This document shows, one piece after another, positions 50,707 through 57,704 of a stretch of 57,704 nt of DNA (within the stretch, counting starts at the first letter, position 1; every line of letters starts with the position of its first letter). Under the pieces are notes generated by a model, which saw nothing but the letters and a program-made list of their open reading frames with translations, was not told the origin of the DNA and made no database searches. The translations under genes and the position numbers were made by a program. The stretch is from IMG/VR virus record IMGVR_UViG_3300032245_001105, positions 1 to 57,704 of that record; one strand, written 5' to 3'. Source of the DNA: a virus.

Positions 50707-51243
50707 ATGAAAACCATTGTACTATTAGCCTTATACGACGAAGCTCCCAAAATGGCCGACTTGCCGTTTGTGTTTTACACCGGAGTAGGCAAAGTAAATG
50801 CGGCCGCAAAAGCCGCAGTATTGATAGAACGACACCGACCCCAACATGTCATCAACTTCGGCACTGCTGGCGGCATAACACAAAGCACCGGCTTTTACCA
50901 AGCCACTAGATTTGTACAACGCGACATGCTGTGTGAGAGCCTGGGATTTGGACCCGGACAAACACCATACGAAACCAATGCTGTTATTGAATTTGCCCCG
51001 GGACTAACTTGCAGTACCGGAGATGACTTTGTTGAAAATCCCTCGCTGGCAATACCTGCAGATCTAGTAGACATGGAAGCATATGCCATAGCCAAAGTAT
51101 GCCAATCAGCCCGTGTTCAATTCAGTTGTTATAAATTTGTAACCGATGCAGCCAACACCACAGCGGCCGATGAGTGGGGCAACCGAGTTGTGCATGGGCA
51201 AACCCATTACCTACTAAAATTAAGAGAATTGGGACTATATTAA
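50707..51243 (+). CDS. PNP/MTAN-family nucleosidase
   Basis: 178 residues, shorter than typical 5'-methylthioadenosine/SAH nucleosidases (about 230). Family marks: an early DE pair (residues 11-12, place of the MTAN Glu12), TGVGKVNAA (25-33), NFGTAGG (50-56), VDMEAYA (121-127, with the ribose-binding Met-Glu) and FVTDAAN (144-150, with the purine-binding Asp147). It should cleave a purine nucleoside (MTA, SAH, 5'-deoxyadenosine or similar) to adenine and a sugar. It is followed without a gap by an adenine phosphoribosyltransferase, which strongly suggests adenine as the product. The exact substrate cannot be read. Confidence 0.85.
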   Translation: MKTIVLLALYDEAPKMADLPFVFYTGVGKVNAAAKAAVLIERHRPQHVINFGTAGGITQSTGFYQATRFVQRDMLCESLGFGPGQTPYETNAVIEFAPGLTCSTGDDFVENPSLAIPADLVDMEAYAIAKVCQSARVQFSCYKFVTDAANTTAADEWGNRVVHGQTHYLLKLRELGLY

Positions 51244-51756
51244 ATGAACTTGAAAAGCATAATTACAGAAACGCCCAATTGGCCCACTACAGGTGTTAAC
51301 TTTCTCGACATAACACCCATATTAGAAAACCCCAGTGTATTTGACTGGTGTATAGATCAATTGGTTGCTAGTGCCAAAACAGCAACCAGCATTGTTGCTG
51401 TGGAGAGTAGAGGATTTCCTATTGGAGCAGTACTAGCCAATAGGCTTGGTATCCCGCTGGTCTTGGTACGCAAACCCGGTAAATTACCTGGTGCTGTATA
51501 CTCAGAGAGCTACGCCACGGAATACAGCACAGACACCGTAGAGATCAAGCAGTCAGCTAATTTGGGTACACACCCCATGATCATTGATGATCTATTGGCC
51601 ACTGGTGGTACAGTTCGTGCAGTCGTGACATTACTTAAAAAGAATTTTAATCCAATTCAAGTATCATGTGGGGTACTAATTAATCTTAGTTTCTTGCCAG
51701 GCCAACAACTATTAAGAGATCTTCAAATAGATCTAACAAGTTTAGAAACATATTAA
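51244..51756 (+). CDS. apt: Adenine phosphoribosyltransferase
   Basis: 170 residues, the normal length. All family marks are present: GVNFLDITPIL (17-27), VAVESRGFPIGAVLA (51-65), VLVRKPGKLPG (73-83, the flexible catalytic loop region), YATEYSTDTVEI (90-101) and the PRPP loop MIIDDLLATGGT (112-123). It makes AMP from adenine and PRPP. The ATG follows the nucleosidase stop directly (TAAATG), so both enzymes should be made together in a fixed ratio. Expected to act in the cytoplasm. A 7-bp hairpin begins at the stop codon. Confidence 0.93.
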   Translation: MNLKSIITETPNWPTTGVNFLDITPILENPSVFDWCIDQLVASAKTATSIVAVESRGFPIGAVLANRLGIPLVLVRKPGKLPGAVYSESYATEYSTDTVEIKQSANLGTHPMIIDDLLATGGTVRAVVTLLKKNFNPIQVSCGVLINLSFLPGQQLLRDLQIDLTSLETY

Positions 51757-52196
51757 GATCTCTAACGAGATCTGTTGTTTCGCTTGCGCTCACAACACTA
51801 TTCTCTGACTTTAGTATCATCCAGATTAATCGGTCACACTTTGCCCGTACAGGGCAAAGATAGCATCATCCGAGTAGCACGATCACTAGTATTAGAACTA
51901 CAAAGGTCTATAATTCACTATAAACTATTTCACAGGCGGTTGTCCGGTACCTGCTCATTCTGTCTTTTCACAACGGCGGATCGACGATAACATACTAGCG
52001 TAATTGTCGACCGTGTACGATCACTCGTACGTCTTTTCAGCCTTAAACATTTTCTTCAAACAATCAAACCGCGGCAATTAGCGATCTTCGTCCTGTCAAG
52101 GATAGTGATTGAGTGCTCTGTACGGCGCAGAGTCTTCCGTCCCAGTGACCCGAGGTCCTGTTTTCTTGGGCACACGTTTTTAGACTTGTGCGAGTC
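51757..52196. ncRNA. Candidate structured RNA, strand not decided
   Basis: 440 bp with no credible gene in any frame, in a genome that is otherwise packed. Perfect or near-perfect hairpins are dense: AGATCTC/GAGATCT (51756-51773), TGTTGT/ACAACA (51773-51797), CTTTGCCC/GGGCAAAG (51839-51859), TCGAC/GTCGA (51981-52010, with flanking GG/CC), GTACGA/TCGTAC (52015-52030), CTCTG/CAGAG (52116-52132) and AGACT/AGTCT (52182-52197). Two copies of TAGyATCATCC (51812, 51861) flank the strongest hairpin. GC content and lack of stops bias look non-coding. I could not find tRNA, tmRNA or RNase P signatures by eye. Alternatives are a decayed gene or an untranslated operon end. Confidence 0.4.
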
Positions 52197-52628
52197 TTAA
52201 CCGTTTAACTTTTTTATGTGGGAGCCATGGACACGAACAGAGATTTGTCCGTTGTAATAATCTTGTGATTCTAGCACTTTGTGTGTGAATTGTTCTCTTG
52301 CTTCGATGTAACTGCATTCAGCTTTGGAGCGACAGTAATACATGATTTCTCGTGTAAACTGATCTGTGCCTAATGCCGCAACGTCTCGATTCAATTCTTC
52401 GTTTGAGCCATAATATGTTTGCCAATCAGAATCAATTTTGCTTCTGATCTTCTTCTTTTTCTTTGTGCCGTTTTTAAGTTTTACTACTTTGTATGTTGTC
52501 TTTGCGAATTTTGATAATTTTTTACCTATGTATTTGCGCCCTGATACACGATTCGTTATGATATAAACGAAGCCCACGCAGTCTTCTGGTAAAGTCTCTA
52601 CTGGGTTTCCTTGATATAGCCATGACAT
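52197..52628 (-). CDS. GIY-YIG endonuclease-like protein
   Basis: 143 residues. VYIITNRVSGRKYIGKKL (residues 21-38) is the GIY-YIG core, followed by a lysine-rich stretch (about 47-63) and WQTYYGSNEELNRDV, then YIEAREQF with the catalytic-type Glu, and a final NGQISVRVHGSH. It resembles SegE-like proteins of T4-like phages. It could be a homing or other DNA nuclease. It stands next to the gene-free stretch but shares no intron signature with it that I can see. Its stop codon lies inside the last hairpin of that stretch. Confidence 0.8.
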   Translation of the reverse strand: MSWLYQGNPVETLPEDCVGFVYIITNRVSGRKYIGKKLSKFAKTTYKVVKLKNGTKKKKKIRSKIDSDWQTYYGSNEELNRDVAALGTDQFTREIMYYCRSKAECSYIEAREQFTHKVLESQDYYNGQISVRVHGSHIKKLNG

Positions 52629-52647
52629 GTAATATAATTATGACAAG

Positions 52648-53652
52648 TTACCATGATGTTGAATATTCTTGATTTACTATGTTTTTGTTGCATTTTTGTT
52701 GACATTCCTGCCATTTGAAAGCCTTAAAGTCATCGTCCCAAAATGGGTCAGTGACTGCATCTGTTAAGGTCCTATGATGCAGATTGAATTGTTCGGCTAG
52801 AGTCTGCCATTCTGTGTTATGACTGTAGCGATTTGCTACCCAGCAACAGGGAAACAGTCTACCTCTAGCATCAATGTAAAGTCCTTTATTACCAATTTCA
52901 CACAAGGGCTTGACATTGTTTTGTATTATAACATCTTTGTATAATTGTATGTTAGTTTCTGAAATTGTAGTAGTTCTATTGGTAAAATCTGTAACATCTC
53001 GTTCAAATCTATGACTAGAGCTGACAAATCGAACGCTGGGTTGCAATGGATCGTCTATACCGTATGACGGATAAACGCTACCAAACTTGGTACTGCGGGT
53101 AAGTTGGAAACGATCAACGCCCAGTGTCTTGGCCATGGTTTGCATACGATCTAAACGATCTTCGTTAAATCGAAACGCAATAGCGGCCCATACAATAGTA
53201 CAAGGACTTGCGGCCCTTAAGGTCTGTAAACCTGCAACAATACTGTCATAATCGCTGTTTACACGGTATAAGTTGTTGCTTACATCGTCATATCCGTCAA
53301 TGCTAAAATGTACACTGTCTTGTTCTGTTAGTGCTTGACCAAGCTGTTGCCACCATTCGATCTTTTTGTGTGATCCGTTTGTAATGATAACAATCTCAAC
53401 AGGCTTTATACTCTTGATGTATTCTATAACAGGAATCAAATCATGTGCATAAATGGGATCACCATCATCTCCGCAGAACGTGATCTTCTCTACATTTGCT
53501 TTTATAAACTCAGGTGTAAAGTTGCGCTTGAAAAACTCCAAGTCTAATTCGGTGTTGACCAGTGTATCGGGAACTTCTTGACGGGCACAGCGAGGACAGC
53601 GCAAGGTGCACTTACTGCTGATTTCAATGTGAAAGTGCCAAGTTGCTAACAT
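52648..53652 (-). CDS. Radical SAM protein 1 with SPASM-like end
   Basis: 334 residues from the ATG at 53652, which overlaps the upstream stop by 7 nt; a start at 53673 is also possible. The radical SAM cluster is CTLRCPRC (Cys15, 19, 22; C-x3-C-x2-C). Next come ITFCGDDGDPI, IVIITNGSHK and VHFSIDGYDDVSNNLYRVN, the barrel motifs shared with two neighbours. The C-terminal part has CEIGNKGLYIDARGRLFPCCW and a late CQQKC, as in SPASM/twitch domains that hold extra Fe-S clusters. Such proteins often modify peptides or proteins. The substrate is unknown. Confidence 0.85.
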   Translation of the reverse strand: MLATWHFHIEISSKCTLRCPRCARQEVPDTLVNTELDLEFFKRNFTPEFIKANVEKITFCGDDGDPIYAHDLIPVIEYIKSIKPVEIVIITNGSHKKIEWWQQLGQALTEQDSVHFSIDGYDDVSNNLYRVNSDYDSIVAGLQTLRAASPCTIVWAAIAFRFNEDRLDRMQTMAKTLGVDRFQLTRSTKFGSVYPSYGIDDPLQPSVRFVSSSHRFERDVTDFTNRTTTISETNIQLYKDVIIQNNVKPLCEIGNKGLYIDARGRLFPCCWVANRYSHNTEWQTLAEQFNLHHRTLTDAVTDPFWDDDFKAFKWQECQQKCNKNIVNQEYSTSW

Positions 53653-54518
53653 AGTGGTACATCTCGTTGCCATTGCCCTGTGAAGTTGGACTGGTTATTG
53701 ACGGTGCTACAGGTTTCTCGACAAATGGGATTACAGTCGTTGGTGTTCCAAGATGCTGTTATAGCATCAAAGTCATTGACAGTATTTTCGCCATACCCCA
53801 GCCAACAGCAGGGATGAAATATACCCTTTGCACTAAGATACAAGCTCTGATCCCGATTTCTAAAACAATCAATTGGACCTTGTTCTACAACAGGACGAGT
53901 CCAACCTCGGGGCGGCTTGAGCCAGTTGACAGTGGGCTCGCGTTTGCTGACTTTGGCACGGAACCAACCAAAGCCCATGTCCTTTGCCAACTGCTCGCAG
54001 GCAGCGACTTGGTGTTCGTTGTGTTCGTAAACCAACATATCCCATTGAGCATTACCTCCAGCACGAATAAATGTTTCTGCATTACGCATCACTCGGTCCC
54101 AACTAACATTCTTACGATAGATATGATTGGTGTCTTCTAAGCCGTCGATGCTAAACACCACATAGTCAGTGGGCTTGTGCAGTACATTGGCTAAATCGGC
54201 CCACCAATGCGTTGCTTGTAGTCCGCCGTTGGTATTCATGCCCAACACAATGCTACTGTTTACTTCTCTAACATACGACAGGATAGACTTGGATGTTTCA
54301 TTCGCAGCCGGGTCTCCGTAGTTACCGCACATAAACAGTTTGTCTAGTCTGTAAATGATTTTCTCAGGCACCGTGTTCTTAAACTCTTGTAGACTTAATT
54401 TGTGCTGAACATGTTTATTAAACGCGGGATCTGTTTCGCGGGCACAGCTAGGGCAGGCCGCTTGACATACATCAGTCGGCTCTACATGCAGTACTCTAAC
54501 AGTTTCAAACAATTTCGA
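53646..54518 (-). CDS. Radical SAM protein 2 with SPASM-like end
   Basis: 290 residues from the ATG at 54518 (an ATG at 54560 lies deep in gp46). It overlaps the end of gp46 by 14 nt. Cluster motif CQAACPSC (Cys19, 23, 26). Shared barrel motifs: FMCGNYGDPA, GMNTNGGLQA and VFSIDGLEDTNHIYRKN. The SPASM-like end has CFRNRDQSLYLSAKG, then FHPCCWLGYG, then CNPICRETC. It is a paralogue of the flanking radical SAM genes. The region with KPPRGWTRPVVEQGPIDC may bind the substrate. Confidence 0.85.
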   Translation of the reverse strand, partial: SKLFETVRVLHVEPTDVCQAACPSCARETDPAFNKHVQHKLSLQEFKNTVPEKIIYRLDKLFMCGNYGDPAANETSKSILSYVREVNSSIVLGMNTNGGLQATHWWADLANVLHKPTDYVVFSIDGLEDTNHIYRKNVSWDRVMRNAETFIRAGGNAQWDMLVYEHNEHQVAACEQLAKDMGFGWFRAKVSKREPTVNWLKPPRGWTRPVVEQGPIDCFRNRDQSLYLSAKGIFHPCCWLGYGENTVNDFDAITASWNTNDCNPICRETCSTVNNQSNFTGQWQRDVPLC

Positions 54519-56274
54519 CATCAGTATTGTAAGTGGTAAATCCGTTTTCTTTAACCACATGGAGTGTGTTGTTCACCCGTCCTGACAATTCATCTTTGTG
54601 ACTTACTAGCCAAATTGATTTGTTGCTGTCACGGCTCATTTTCTTTAGAATAGCAAGACTGTTTTCGACACCCGAACTATCCATGCCTGAATCAACAAGT
54701 TCATCGATGAACAACAAGTTAATGGGTTGATATAGACTTTCCCATACATCACGGAATGCCCATGATAAACTCAATATAAGTCTATTGCGTTCACCACGCG
54801 ATAAATTGTCAAAGTCCAAATCTCTACCTAGTTCACTGATTGCTACAGTTAAATCGTTGTTGAACTTGACAGTATGCGGCAAGCCGATACGATCCAAGTA
54901 CTGTCCCAGGCGAGCATTCAAATAACTTAGGTTCTGATCAATAATACGCTTACGGATAAAACTGTCTTTGTTGGTCAATAATTTAAGCAAGAACTCTTGG
55001 TGATCCTTTAAACTTGCCAACTCGTTCATGGTACTGAAATCAATTTCTTCTAGGGCTTGTTCACTCATGTCGGTAATTTGATCAGCGTATGGATCTGCTT
55101 CTGCTTCTTTGGCAGTTAGTTGTGCCAACACACTGGCCATGCTACTACGATGTTCAAATGCATCACTTTCTCGATCGTAAAATACTTCGGGTCTTGAACC
55201 TAAAGCACCCAAGGCCTTTAGTGAGTCGGTATGTTCTATCCATTGTGTATTTGTTGCCAAGGACTGTAGTGCGGCTTCTTGTAAATCTTTTTTCTTTTGT
55301 GCCAGCACAGCTTCTTGTTTAGAATCATGAAATCCTTGACCACACGCATGACATGTATGATTTTCTAAACTTTCAATTTCTACTTTGAGTGTTTCAATTA
55401 GTTTTTGTTCACGACGCTCATCTAGCTCACAGCGTTTGATCCACGAGTTTAAATCATTAATTTTTTTACTTTTTTCATTATAAGCAGACAATGCAAGATG
55501 CGCCGCCAGCTCTGCTTCGATGTCGATTCGACTTAGTTCATCAAACGCCGATTGGAACCGAGCAACATCTTCGTTGTGCTTGGCTTGCCACATGCGCTGA
55601 CGCTTACGCAAGTTTTCAATCTGTTCTTCAATGCGTTTATTTGCATCGCCTACAGCCTTGATGCGGAATTCCTCGGCAGTAATGGCATCCTTGGTGGCCT
55701 TGCCTAGTTCTTTAAGACGTTCGGCTTTTTCACTTAGTAGGGTAATACCCAATAACTGCTCAATGATGGTTCGTTGATCATTGGCTTTTAAACTTAGAAA
55801 AGGCTCGGTATAGGTATTGAGCGCCACAATGTGCTTGAACATGTCATGACTCATGCCCAACATGCGCTCAATTTCGGCTTGGGTTTCTCTTGAATCGCCT
55901 TGACTATCGTCGGTGATTTCTTTTTCGTTGCCGCTGATCCAGAATTTCATAATGCCGGGTTTGCGACCACGCTCGATACGATAGTCAACACCCCCAACTT
56001 CAAAATCAATACAAACCAACATGCCTTTGCTGTTGGTCTTGTTGATCAGATTGTCTTTTTTAATGTTGGTTAGGGCGTTGCCGTAAAGGGCATAGGACAG
56101 CGCATTTATAATTGTTGTCTTCCCGGTCCCGTTACGAGCTCCTGAGTCATCGCCCCCTAGGTCTAGGTTTTCACCCAACACCAAGGTCAAGTCTCTGCGA
56201 TCAAAGTTAACCGCTTGTGTGGTATTGCCCACACTCATGAAGTTTTTTACAGTTAAGTCTTTTATTTTAAACAT
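54505..56274 (-). CDS. gp46: Recombination nuclease subunit gp46 (Rad50/SMC-like)
   Basis: 589 residues; T4 gp46 has 560. Walker A GARNGTGKTT (45-54), a coiled-coil middle with a zinc hook CHAC (about 310), the ABC signature LSRGERNRLILSLSWAF and Walker B LLFIDELVDSGMD near residue 540, and a D-loop/H-loop end (SIWLVSHKDEL). With gp47 it makes the Mre11-Rad50 type complex that processes DNA ends for recombination-dependent replication. A radical SAM gene lies between it and gp47. Confidence 0.95.
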   Translation of the reverse strand: MFKIKDLTVKNFMSVGNTTQAVNFDRRDLTLVLGENLDLGGDDSGARNGTGKTTIINALSYALYGNALTNIKKDNLINKTNSKGMLVCIDFEVGGVDYRIERGRKPGIMKFWISGNEKEITDDSQGDSRETQAEIERMLGMSHDMFKHIVALNTYTEPFLSLKANDQRTIIEQLLGITLLSEKAERLKELGKATKDAITAEEFRIKAVGDANKRIEEQIENLRKRQRMWQAKHNEDVARFQSAFDELSRIDIEAELAAHLALSAYNEKSKKINDLNSWIKRCELDERREQKLIETLKVEIESLENHTCHACGQGFHDSKQEAVLAQKKKDLQEAALQSLATNTQWIEHTDSLKALGALGSRPEVFYDRESDAFEHRSSMASVLAQLTAKEAEADPYADQITDMSEQALEEIDFSTMNELASLKDHQEFLLKLLTNKDSFIRKRIIDQNLSYLNARLGQYLDRIGLPHTVKFNNDLTVAISELGRDLDFDNLSRGERNRLILSLSWAFRDVWESLYQPINLLFIDELVDSGMDSSGVENSLAILKKMSRDSNKSIWLVSHKDELSGRVNNTLHVVKENGFTTYNTDVEIV

Positions 56275-56277
56275 ATA

Positions 56278-57120
56278 TTATTTGCCACAATGGTAAAGAC
56301 ATTGTCGTCTGGGATTGGGTAATTCACTCGCAATGTCTGGTAATTGGTTCAACGCATCAAAACTTAAACTGGTGTTAAAAAAGCAACAGGTGCTTAACTT
56401 ACCGTTGGCATTCAAGTATACACTAGGCTGTGACAAATGTCGACAATCTTGGGCAGTTACAGTTAAATTAGTTTTTTCATACTTGCTAAATTTTTGATTC
56501 TCTTCCCACGGATCTATCACATAAGGTTCACCAGTGCGCCAATTGCGAGCATTGAAATCTCTACGAACATTTCGCACAAACTCAAAACGACTAAACCCCA
56601 GGTCTTGACTCATTTTGATACATTTTAGTATTTGATGTTGATTGTGCTTCCATGGAATGAACTGCCAAACAGCAACACCGCCTTGATTTATAAAAACTGT
56701 TGCGTTGTTGATTATGGTATCAAAATCTGTACCTTGTCTATAAATAGCATGAGTGTCGGCTAGGCCATCTAAGCAGAACCATACTTCATGATCATGCCCT
56801 TTGAGAATATTGGCAAATTGTGCCCACCACACATCATTTCTTAGACTACCGTTGGTTCTTAATATGACTTTTGGCACATGTCGTTTTGCAATTTCTACCA
56901 AGGTTTTTATATTGTGTGCGGCAACAGCATCGCCGTAGGTGCCGCAAAAATCAACAACTTCCAAATGGGGCATTGATTTTACATGCTGTTCAAAAATGTT
57001 TTCATCTAGATCTTCGAGCACCAAGCCATCGGCCAATTCATACCCGCCCTTGCTTCTTCCACATCCAGGACACCAAGCATTACATTTGGTTGTGGCTTCT
57101 ACCTGTAACCACTTGTGCAT
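56278..57120 (-). CDS. Radical SAM protein 3 with SPASM-like end
   Basis: 280 residues. Cluster motif CNAWCPGC (Cys13, 17, 20). Shared motifs: VDFCGTYGDAVAAHN, ILRTNGSLRN and VWFCLDGLADTHAIYRQG. The SPASM-like end has CRHLSQPSVYLNANG and STCCFFN, with CLYHCG at the very end. The ATG shares one base with the gp47 stop (TAATG), and the stop is 3 nt before gp46, so it is inserted exactly between the two nuclease genes and co-translated with them. Confidence 0.87.
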   Translation of the reverse strand: MHKWLQVEATTKCNAWCPGCGRSKGGYELADGLVLEDLDENIFEQHVKSMPHLEVVDFCGTYGDAVAAHNIKTLVEIAKRHVPKVILRTNGSLRNDVWWAQFANILKGHDHEVWFCLDGLADTHAIYRQGTDFDTIINNATVFINQGGVAVWQFIPWKHNQHQILKCIKMSQDLGFSRFEFVRNVRRDFNARNWRTGEPYVIDPWEENQKFSKYEKTNLTVTAQDCRHLSQPSVYLNANGKLSTCCFFNTSLSFDALNQLPDIASELPNPRRQCLYHCGK

Positions 57121-57704
57121 TACAGATTCCTGTATATGTCTAGTAGCAAGTTCTTGTTAAACTTGTCGCTTTCGATGTTGCTGAGTTGCCCTGTGACAAT
57201 TTGATCCACACTTTCAAACGCAATATTGCCCTGTATTTCGTATTCGGTCAAGTCTGTGACTTTGGCCGGAATCAGTGTAATTTCTCTGAGTTTGTATTGA
57301 TCGATGAAAGTTTCTTTAATAAAGGTTGCTTCTTCGTAACTGATATCCACATCCAAGTTGACACGACAATGCATTCCGGGTTGTAGCATTGCTTCAGTGT
57401 GTTGTAGCACATCACTGAGTTGAAACACACGATACCTGGGTTGATCAGGCCACGCATGGTGCACCGGCTCTTTGCCCCATTCTAATATCATTAAGCCACG
57501 ATCATCGTCGCCGGCATCGGCATAGTTGTGTGGGAAACAGTTGCCAATGTAGGTGATATTCTTTTGTGTTTGTCGTTTGTGAAAATGTCCAGTAAACACA
57601 TGATCAAATCCGCCAAAGTGTTCTCTACGTACATCGCCATGCTCGGGCATGGCCACCATGGCATTCATCAAGTAGCCTGGCAACTCAAAGTGCCCAAACA
57701 TGTA
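57120..57704 (-). CDS. gp47: Recombination nuclease subunit gp47 (Mre11-like), 5' end missing
   Basis: The frame is open through the right edge (a Tyr codon precedes the internal Met), so only the C-terminal part (about 194 codons) is here. MFGHFELPGYLMNA and HVFTGHFHKRQ carry the late metal-binding histidines of the Mre11 phosphoesterase fold (GHFE and GHFH), followed by TYIGNCFPHNYADAGD and the cap region. It is the nuclease partner of gp46. Its stop overlaps the start of the third radical SAM gene. Confidence 0.92.
   Translation of the reverse strand, partial: YMFGHFELPGYLMNAMVAMPEHGDVRREHFGGFDHVFTGHFHKRQTQKNITYIGNCFPHNYADAGDDDRGLMILEWGKEPVHHAWPDQPRYRVFQLSDVLQHTEAMLQPGMHCRVNLDVDISYEEATFIKETFIDQYKLREITLIPAKVTDLTEYEIQGNIAFESVDQIVTGQLSNIESDKFNKNLLLDIYRNL

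What the first reader, a model, noticed from the sequence alone, without database searches (positions are those of the whole stretch)
52648..57120. Three paralogous radical SAM/SPASM-like enzymes woven into the gp46-gp47 nuclease operon
Three proteins with C-x3-C-x2-C clusters, shared CGxxGD, TNG and SIDGLxDTxxIYR motifs and Cys-rich SPASM-like ends surround gp46, with stop-start overlaps (TAATG, 14 nt, 7 nt). SPASM enzymes commonly modify peptides. A phage with three such paralogues in its recombination operon suggests a multi-step modification system of a peptide, protein or nucleic acid. No precursor peptide gene is evident in the window.
Basis: partly seen in the sequence, partly recalled or inferred. 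Interest (0 to 1): 0.82.

Follow-up and report, generated by a model that had tools for sequence, protein, structure and literature searches.

The report
Phage sugar-type radical SAM gene trio
A freshwater T4-like virus of bacteria carries three related iron-sulphur radical enzymes in interchangeable slots around its recombination genes; their relatives travel with sugar-building enzymes, so they probably remodel a sugar or glycan rather than a small peptide.

Summary
The three genes are real, and their SAM-binding motifs are intact and conserved in hundreds of relatives. They are not SPASM proteins. Each has a four-cysteine twitch motif, with one auxiliary cluster predicted; the seven-cysteine SPASM pattern occurs in 0 of 212 relatives. 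They are old paralogues (29% identity; rSAM2 groups with Bdellovibrionota chromosomal genes), not recent duplicates. They are not part of a fixed recombination operon. The gp47-gp46 and gp46-GIY-YIG junctions are cargo slots: 44 of 73 contigs sampled by gp46 carry an rSAM in the second slot, 29 carry none, and other contigs hold SGNH hydrolases, a sulfotransferase, UDP-glucose dehydrogenase or epimerases. No precursor peptide gene fits (junctions nearly all under 60 nt), and there is no N-terminal peptide-recognition domain. Relatives hold 1-21 rSAM genes per record. An rSAM lies within 5 kb of a carbamoyltransferase in 14 of 15 records and within 16 kb of an epimerase plus DegT sugar-aminotransferase pair in 14 of 14. 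Similar partners surround rSAM genes in Bdellovibrionota. Best reading: BtrN/BlsE-like oxidation or rearrangement of a sugar or glycan. Substrate and product are unproven. rSAM cassettes in T4-like phages were already known.

The parts
52648..53673 (-). rSAM1, twitch radical SAM enzyme, 341 aa (334 aa if the conserved inner Met8 is the start)
   Evidence: PF04055 1.6e-9; 227 relatives in IMG/VR; AF2 model pLDDT 88; Met8 shared by 75 of 92 orthologues
53587..53610 (-). rSAM1 CX3CX2C motif (C22, C26, C29) for the SAM-binding cluster
   Evidence: 91 of 91 orthologues
52690..52902 (-). rSAM1 twitch cysteines C258, C276, C324, C328
   Evidence: full motif in 89 of 91
53646..54560 (-). rSAM2, twitch radical SAM enzyme, 304 aa
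   Evidence: PF04055 5.8e-8; 290 relatives; groups with Bdellovibrionota homologues
54444..54467 (-). rSAM2 CX3CX2C motif (C32, C36, C39)
   Evidence: 99 of 99
53709..53867 (-). rSAM2 twitch cysteines C232, C251, C280, C284
   Evidence: full motif in 92 of 99
54505..56274 (-). gp46 (SbcC-like recombination nuclease subunit), flank of both cargo slots
   Evidence: phrog_77 9e-101
56278..57120 (-). rSAM3, twitch radical SAM enzyme, 280 aa, in the gp47-gp46 slot
   Evidence: phrog_21308 9.5e-20; 24 relatives
57061..57084 (-). rSAM3 CX3CX2C motif (C13, C17, C20)
   Evidence: 22 of 22
56287..56445 (-). rSAM3 twitch cysteines C226, C245, C274, C278
   Evidence: 22 of 22
57120..57704 (-). gp47 (SbcD-like), C-terminal part, cut by window end
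   Evidence: phrog_100 5.8e-25
52197..52628 (-). conserved GIY-YIG / SegE-like gene, downstream border of the cargo slot
   Evidence: PF19835 2e-33; in 166 of 180 rSAM-selected loci
50707..51243 (+). compact MTA/SAH-type nucleosidase, possible remover of 5'-deoxyadenosine
   Evidence: PF01048 2.3e-16, NF004168 3e-25; invariant E12, E124, D147
51244..51756 (+). adenine phosphoribosyltransferase, possible adenine salvage
   Evidence: NF002636 2.8e-48, over its cut-off

Best explanation
Three twitch-domain radical SAM enzymes carried as optional cargo of a T4-like phage clade. Shown by sequence: each has a SAM-cleaving [4Fe-4S] motif and a four-cysteine auxiliary-cluster motif. Inferred: SAM cleavage gives a 5'-deoxyadenosyl radical that takes a hydrogen from a carbon of a sugar (free, nucleotide-linked or in a glycan); the auxiliary cluster takes up the second electron, giving an oxidised, dehydrated or rearranged sugar, as in BtrN, BlsE or DesII. 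Further inferred: the product feeds a phage-encoded amino-sugar/glycan tailoring set (dehydratase/epimerase, DegT aminotransferase, carbamoyltransferase, GT-A-like transferase, SGNH hydrolases) that alters a virion or host surface glycan. The adjacent nucleosidase and APRT may clear the inhibitory 5'-deoxyadenosine and salvage its adenine.
For: Twitch four-Cys motif in 203 of 212 relatives, SPASM pattern in 0. PDB fold hits include BlsE and DesII, which act on sugars, and MoaA. Slot cargo: UDP-glucose dehydrogenase, sulfotransferase, RmlD/epimerase, SDR, AMP-ligase, aminotransferase. Relatives: carbamoyltransferase within 5 kb of an rSAM in 14 of 15 records (0 of 20,000 random placements) and an adjacent Epimerase+DegT pair within 16 kb in 14 of 14. 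C-twitch homologues sit inside those clusters (L184 9504-10490, L191 5925-6926). A partner family with GT-A-like fold hits lies near an rSAM in 77 of 80 loci. Bdellovibrionota: 22 of 164 rSAM neighbours match phage cargo versus 0 of 160 control genes, p = 2e-7; GT2 in 7 of 117 versus 0 of 120. CP220 and Mosig show the same company.
Against: No sugar gene lies next to the three genes in this window; the link is by family and by other phages. Structural hits do not separate sugar, nucleotide and peptide enzymes (viperin ranks first; SuiB and SkfB also appear). The GT-A match of the partner is weak (TM about 0.3). The Epimerase+DegT distance alone is only modestly unusual (p = 0.025). The MTAN link is weak: many marine loci with MTAN have no rSAM nearby.
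Confidence: 0.5

Rival explanations
1. Protein-modifying enzymes: they oxidise or cross-link side chains of a virion protein (for example tail fibre or capsid) or of a host protein, in the manner of anaerobic sulfatase-maturating enzyme, without an RRE.
For: Related rSAM clusters lie next to tail-fibre-like genes (L184, L185, Mosig). Structural hits include SuiB, SkfB, EpeE and anSME. Asp/Arg hydroxylase-type genes occur in the same company.
Against: The strongest statistical partners are sugar enzymes. Homologues on Bdellovibrionota chromosomes share the partners in a setting that is not a phage tail module.
Confidence: 0.2
2. Nucleotide-directed enzymes: viperin- or MoaA-like, acting on NTPs or a cofactor to disturb host metabolism or defend the infected cell.
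For: Viperin is the best fold match (3e-11) and pVip hits rSAM1 at 1.9e-8.
Against: The pVip match covers only the radical core; the NCBIfam viperin score is 27.8 against a cut-off of 180. Viperins lack (established knowledge) the auxiliary cluster whose ligands are conserved here; rSAM2 and rSAM3 have no pVip match.
Confidence: 0.12
3. DNA hypermodification: an rSAM step in a modified-base pathway, as described for some phages with hypermodified thymidine (recalled, not tested).
For: Four relatives carry a thymidylate synthase-like gene next to the Epimerase/DegT pair.
Against: No 5-hmU DNA kinase family match in 18 records, but no control genome rang either, so this is weak. Thymidylate synthase-like genes are in only 4 of 18 records although all have rSAM.
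Confidence: 0.08
4. RiPP-type maturases that modify a small precursor peptide.
For: SPASM/twitch maturases are common in RiPP systems; SkfB is a twitch maturase and is the best PDB sequence hit (2.4e-8).
Against: No N-terminal RRE: the radical motif starts at residue 13-32, while SkfB's N-terminal peptide-binding domain is residues 12-105 (PMC6231123). rSAM2-rSAM1 junctions are at most 60 nt in 71 of 72 cases. Few small cargo ORFs. The only free stretch over 20 nt in the window region is 301 nt between the APRT gene and the structured RNA.
Confidence: 0.05

Closest known systems
Radical SAM cassettes of T4-like phages (Campylobacter phages CP220/CPt10, pelagimyophages, TARA_ERS488813_N000010)
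   Same: Several rSAM genes per T4-like genome, in exchangeable cassettes with glycosyltransferase, amidinotransferase or carbamoyltransferase genes (PMC2853527, PMC7029224, PMC5332604)
   Different: Here the three genes sit in the gp47/gp46/GIY-YIG junctions; relatives reach 21 rSAM genes against 12 reported; sequence identity to CP220/Mosig is only 24-28%
Twitch rSAM enzymes acting on small molecules (BtrN, MoaA)
   Same: CX3CX2C core and four-cysteine auxiliary motif, as described for BtrN (PMC9012708)
   Different: No recognisable orthology; substrate unknown; the adjacent second Cys at the auxiliary motif is a feature of this family
BlsE (cytosylglucuronate decarboxylase) and DesII
   Same: Predicted fold: BlsE 5e-10, DesII 3e-7
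   Different: TM-scores of only 0.5-0.6 and 11-17% identity
RiPP maturases (SkfB, SuiB)
   Same: Radical core, twitch/SPASM C-terminal domain
   Different: RRE absent here, no precursor gene

Membership tests
Radical SAM superfamily | CX3CX2C motif and SAM-binding barrel | tested here: met
   212 of 212 relatives have CX3CX2C; rSAM1 model. Only rSAM1 was modelled.
SPASM subfamily | seven-cysteine CX9-15GX4C-gap-CX2CX5CX3C-gap-C pattern, two auxiliary clusters | tested here: not met
   0 of 212; Pfam SPASM matches rSAM1 only, below cut-off (17.1 vs 21.5 bits)
Twitch subfamily | CX9-15GX4C plus a closing Cys pair, one auxiliary cluster | tested here: met
   203 of 212 at motif level; cluster itself not testable here
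RiPP maturase | RRE domain or adjacent precursor peptide gene | tested here: not met
   No N-terminal extension; no room for a precursor in slots; precursor elsewhere in the genome not excluded
Viperin | full-length viperin profile | tested here: not met
   27.8 vs cut-off 180 bits; core-only pVip hit
Sugar-active twitch enzymes (works-like claim) | turnover of a sugar or nucleotide-sugar | not testable with these tools
   Genomic context only
Fixed member of the gp46/gp47 recombination operon | present wherever gp46 and gp47 are | tested here: not met
   29 of 73 contigs sampled by gp46 lack any rSAM between gp46 and GIY-YIG; 58 of 69 lack one between gp47 and gp46

The most novel reading that the evidence does not exclude
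T4-like freshwater phages and Bdellovibrionota share a mobile radical-chemistry sugar toolbox of up to about 20 rSAM enzymes plus sugar-nucleotide enzymes that makes a so far unknown surface glycan; the gp46-slot enzymes are exchangeable steps of it.
Probability: 0.35. Interest if true: 0.75.

Novelty: new variant of a known kind. Interest (0 to 1): 0.55.

Why it matters
Since 2010 T4-like phages have been known to carry puzzling numbers of radical SAM genes with no function assigned. The shared partner set with carbamoyltransferase, sugar dehydratase/aminotransferase and a GT-A-like protein, in phages and in part in Bdellovibrionota, turns that puzzle into a testable statement about sugar chemistry, and explains the position in the recombination operon as slot exchange rather than a role in recombination.

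Tried and rejected
SPASM assignment: rejected by the Cys pattern. RiPP precursor search in the slots and window: nothing conserved; small 'ORF' clusters downstream of the GIY-YIG gene largely overlap a structured RNA, RF01718. Recent tandem duplication: rejected by the tree, although several forks are open and the tree was built by a quick search. An obligate recombination role: rejected by presence/absence. DNA hypermodification: PF18723 rang nowhere, even in controls, so inconclusive. MTAN-rSAM co-occurrence: 23 of 26 versus 21 of 37 loci, p = 0.01, but the two samples were drawn differently, so only suggestive. Bacterial origin by a genome scan: only four loci; the Pacearchaeota-labelled contig carries phage-type genes and is probably misbinned. 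No single PDB hit of the rSAM1 model identifies the substrate.

Full report
Observation. The window is a 57,704-base IMG/VR virus record. On the minus strand it reads gp47 (cut by the window end), rSAM3, gp46, rSAM2, rSAM1, a GIY-YIG/SegE-like gene and an Rfam RF01718 RNA. The three rSAM ORFs match Pfam Radical_SAM (1.6e-9, 5.8e-8, 0.011) and all have phrog_21308 as best phage family. They share 29% identity with invariant CX3CX2C, CGxxGD and TNG motifs. The Met8 start of rSAM1 is shared by 75 of 92 orthologues.

Subfamily. The C-terminal cysteines read C-X12/13-G-X4-C ... C-X3-C in each protein, the pattern of a twitch domain with one auxiliary cluster. The full twitch motif is present in 89/91, 92/99 and 22/22 relatives of rSAM1, 2 and 3; the SPASM pattern occurs in none. 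BtrN binds its auxiliary cluster with four cysteines (PMC9012708). The AlphaFold2 model of rSAM1 (pLDDT 88, pTM 0.89) matches viperin, BlsE, SuiB, MoaA, SkfB and DesII with TM-scores around 0.5-0.6, so fold alone does not name the substrate.

Relatives and history. IMG/VR holds at least 227, 290 and 24 relatives found by the three queries. In a tree of 104 domains, rSAM1, rSAM2 and rSAM3 each group with their own orthologues inside one C-terminal-twitch clade; rSAM2 groups with chromosomal genes of Bdellovibrionota, and CP220 and Mosig enzymes fall in or next to the clade. The N-twitch enzymes of tandem clusters form a separate clade. The tree is a quick search with several open forks, so only the grouping by orthologue set is relied on.

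Cargo slots. The first 180 loci were mostly selected by rSAM and cannot show frequency, so I resampled by gp46. Of 73 contigs with gp46 and the downstream GIY-YIG gene, 44 have an rSAM between them and 29 have none; between gp47 and gp46 an rSAM is present in 11 of 69. Empty sites exist (gp47-gp46 junctions of -3 to 36 nt; gp46-GIY junctions down to 16 nt). Other cargo in the same slots includes SGNH-type proteins, SDR, sulfotransferase, UDP-glucose dehydrogenase, epimerase/RmlD, adenylate-forming enzymes, aminotransferase-like, amidinotransferase-like (by sequence look only), Rieske and 2OG-Fe(II) oxygenases and B12-type rSAM. The genes are therefore exchangeable cargo rather than part of the recombination machinery.

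No peptide substrate nearby. Junctions are at most 60 nt in 104 of 109 gp46-rSAM2, 71 of 72 rSAM2-rSAM1 and 99 of 106 rSAM1-GIY cases. In the window the only free stretch above 20 nt in this region is 301 nt between APRT and the RNA. The radical motif begins at residues 13-32, leaving no space for an RRE, unlike SkfB.

Company kept elsewhere. Nineteen whole records of relatives carry 1 to 21 PF04055 genes. In eight records inspected, N-twitch rSAM enzymes form conserved sets; two of these clusters (L184, L191) contain a C-twitch enzyme as well. A carbamoyltransferase lies within 5 kb of a listed rSAM in 14 of 15 records (mean 4.3 by random placement, 0 of 20,000 trials as high), and an adjacent Epimerase plus DegT aminotransferase pair within 16 kb in 14 of 14 (tested at 20 kb: p = 0.025). 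A partner family is found near an rSAM in 77 of 80 viral loci; its model (pLDDT 87) hits GT-A glycosyltransferases and sugar nucleotidyltransferases, weakly (best E 4e-4). CP220 has rSAM genes with two sugar-transferase-fold genes and an amidinotransferase; Mosig has MoaA-like genes with an ArnB-like aminotransferase, a carbamoyltransferase and a methyltransferase beside tail fibres.

Bacterial homologues. 25 of 291 genomes of the sample from the phylum of G020 (the Halobacteriovoraceae genome behind L181, Bdellovibrionota) carry C-twitch homologues at E <= 1e-30, with up to nine rSAM-type genes in 20 kb. In rSAM regions 22 of 164 other genes have homologues among the phage cluster and slot genes, versus 0 of 160 in control stretches of the same genomes (p = 2e-7); glycosyltransferase family 2 is found in 7 of 117 versus 0 of 120 (p = 0.007).

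Mechanism. Shown: gene structure, motifs, cargo behaviour, shared partners. Inferred: catalysis, sugar substrate, electron uptake by the auxiliary cluster, and the use of the product on a virion or host glycan. The neighbouring nucleosidase (with conserved E12, E124 and D147, which I equate from memory with the E. coli MTAN catalytic residues) and APRT could recycle 5'-deoxyadenosine, but this pair also occurs in phage loci without a nearby rSAM.

Prior knowledge. Multiple rSAM genes in T4-like phages were reported for CP220/CPt10 (11 and 12), for a TARA genome (12) and as cassettes in the host-recognition region of pelagimyophages (PMC2853527, PMC5332604, PMC7029224). What is added here: the twitch assignment, the slot behaviour at gp46, numbers up to 21, and the sugar-type toolbox shared with Bdellovibrionota.

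Noticed in passing
window 52058-52196 (-): Rfam RF01718 Polynucleobacter-1 RNA (107.6 bits) directly after the GIY-YIG gene; found at gathering score in 8 of 13 related loci scanned, also in loci without rSAM genes in the slot (L194, L195), so it looks like a phage RNA independent of the rSAM genes.
   Followed up: partly
window 50707-51756 (+): Nucleosidase (MTAN-like) plus adenine phosphoribosyltransferase pair; 65 of 80 viral relatives of the nucleosidase lie near gp46 or the GIY-YIG gene.
   Followed up: partly
records G002, G003, G006, G009, G010 (relatives, 289-374 kb): All five largest records carry two A-type Fe-S carrier (PF01521) genes each; none of the 13 smaller records do.
   Followed up: no
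L376 and L375 (Bdellovibrionota genomes): Nine and eight rSAM-type genes within 20 kb of a bacterial chromosome.
   Followed up: partly
L180, L182: Contigs filed under a Pacearchaeota and a Flavobacterium MAG carry the phage-type rSAM genes; L180 looks like phage DNA, so misbinning is likely.
   Followed up: no
window 52197-52628 (-): The GIY-YIG gene matches phrog_447, which is labelled 'NAD synthetase'; the label appears wrong given the Pfam SegE_GIY-YIG match.
   Followed up: no
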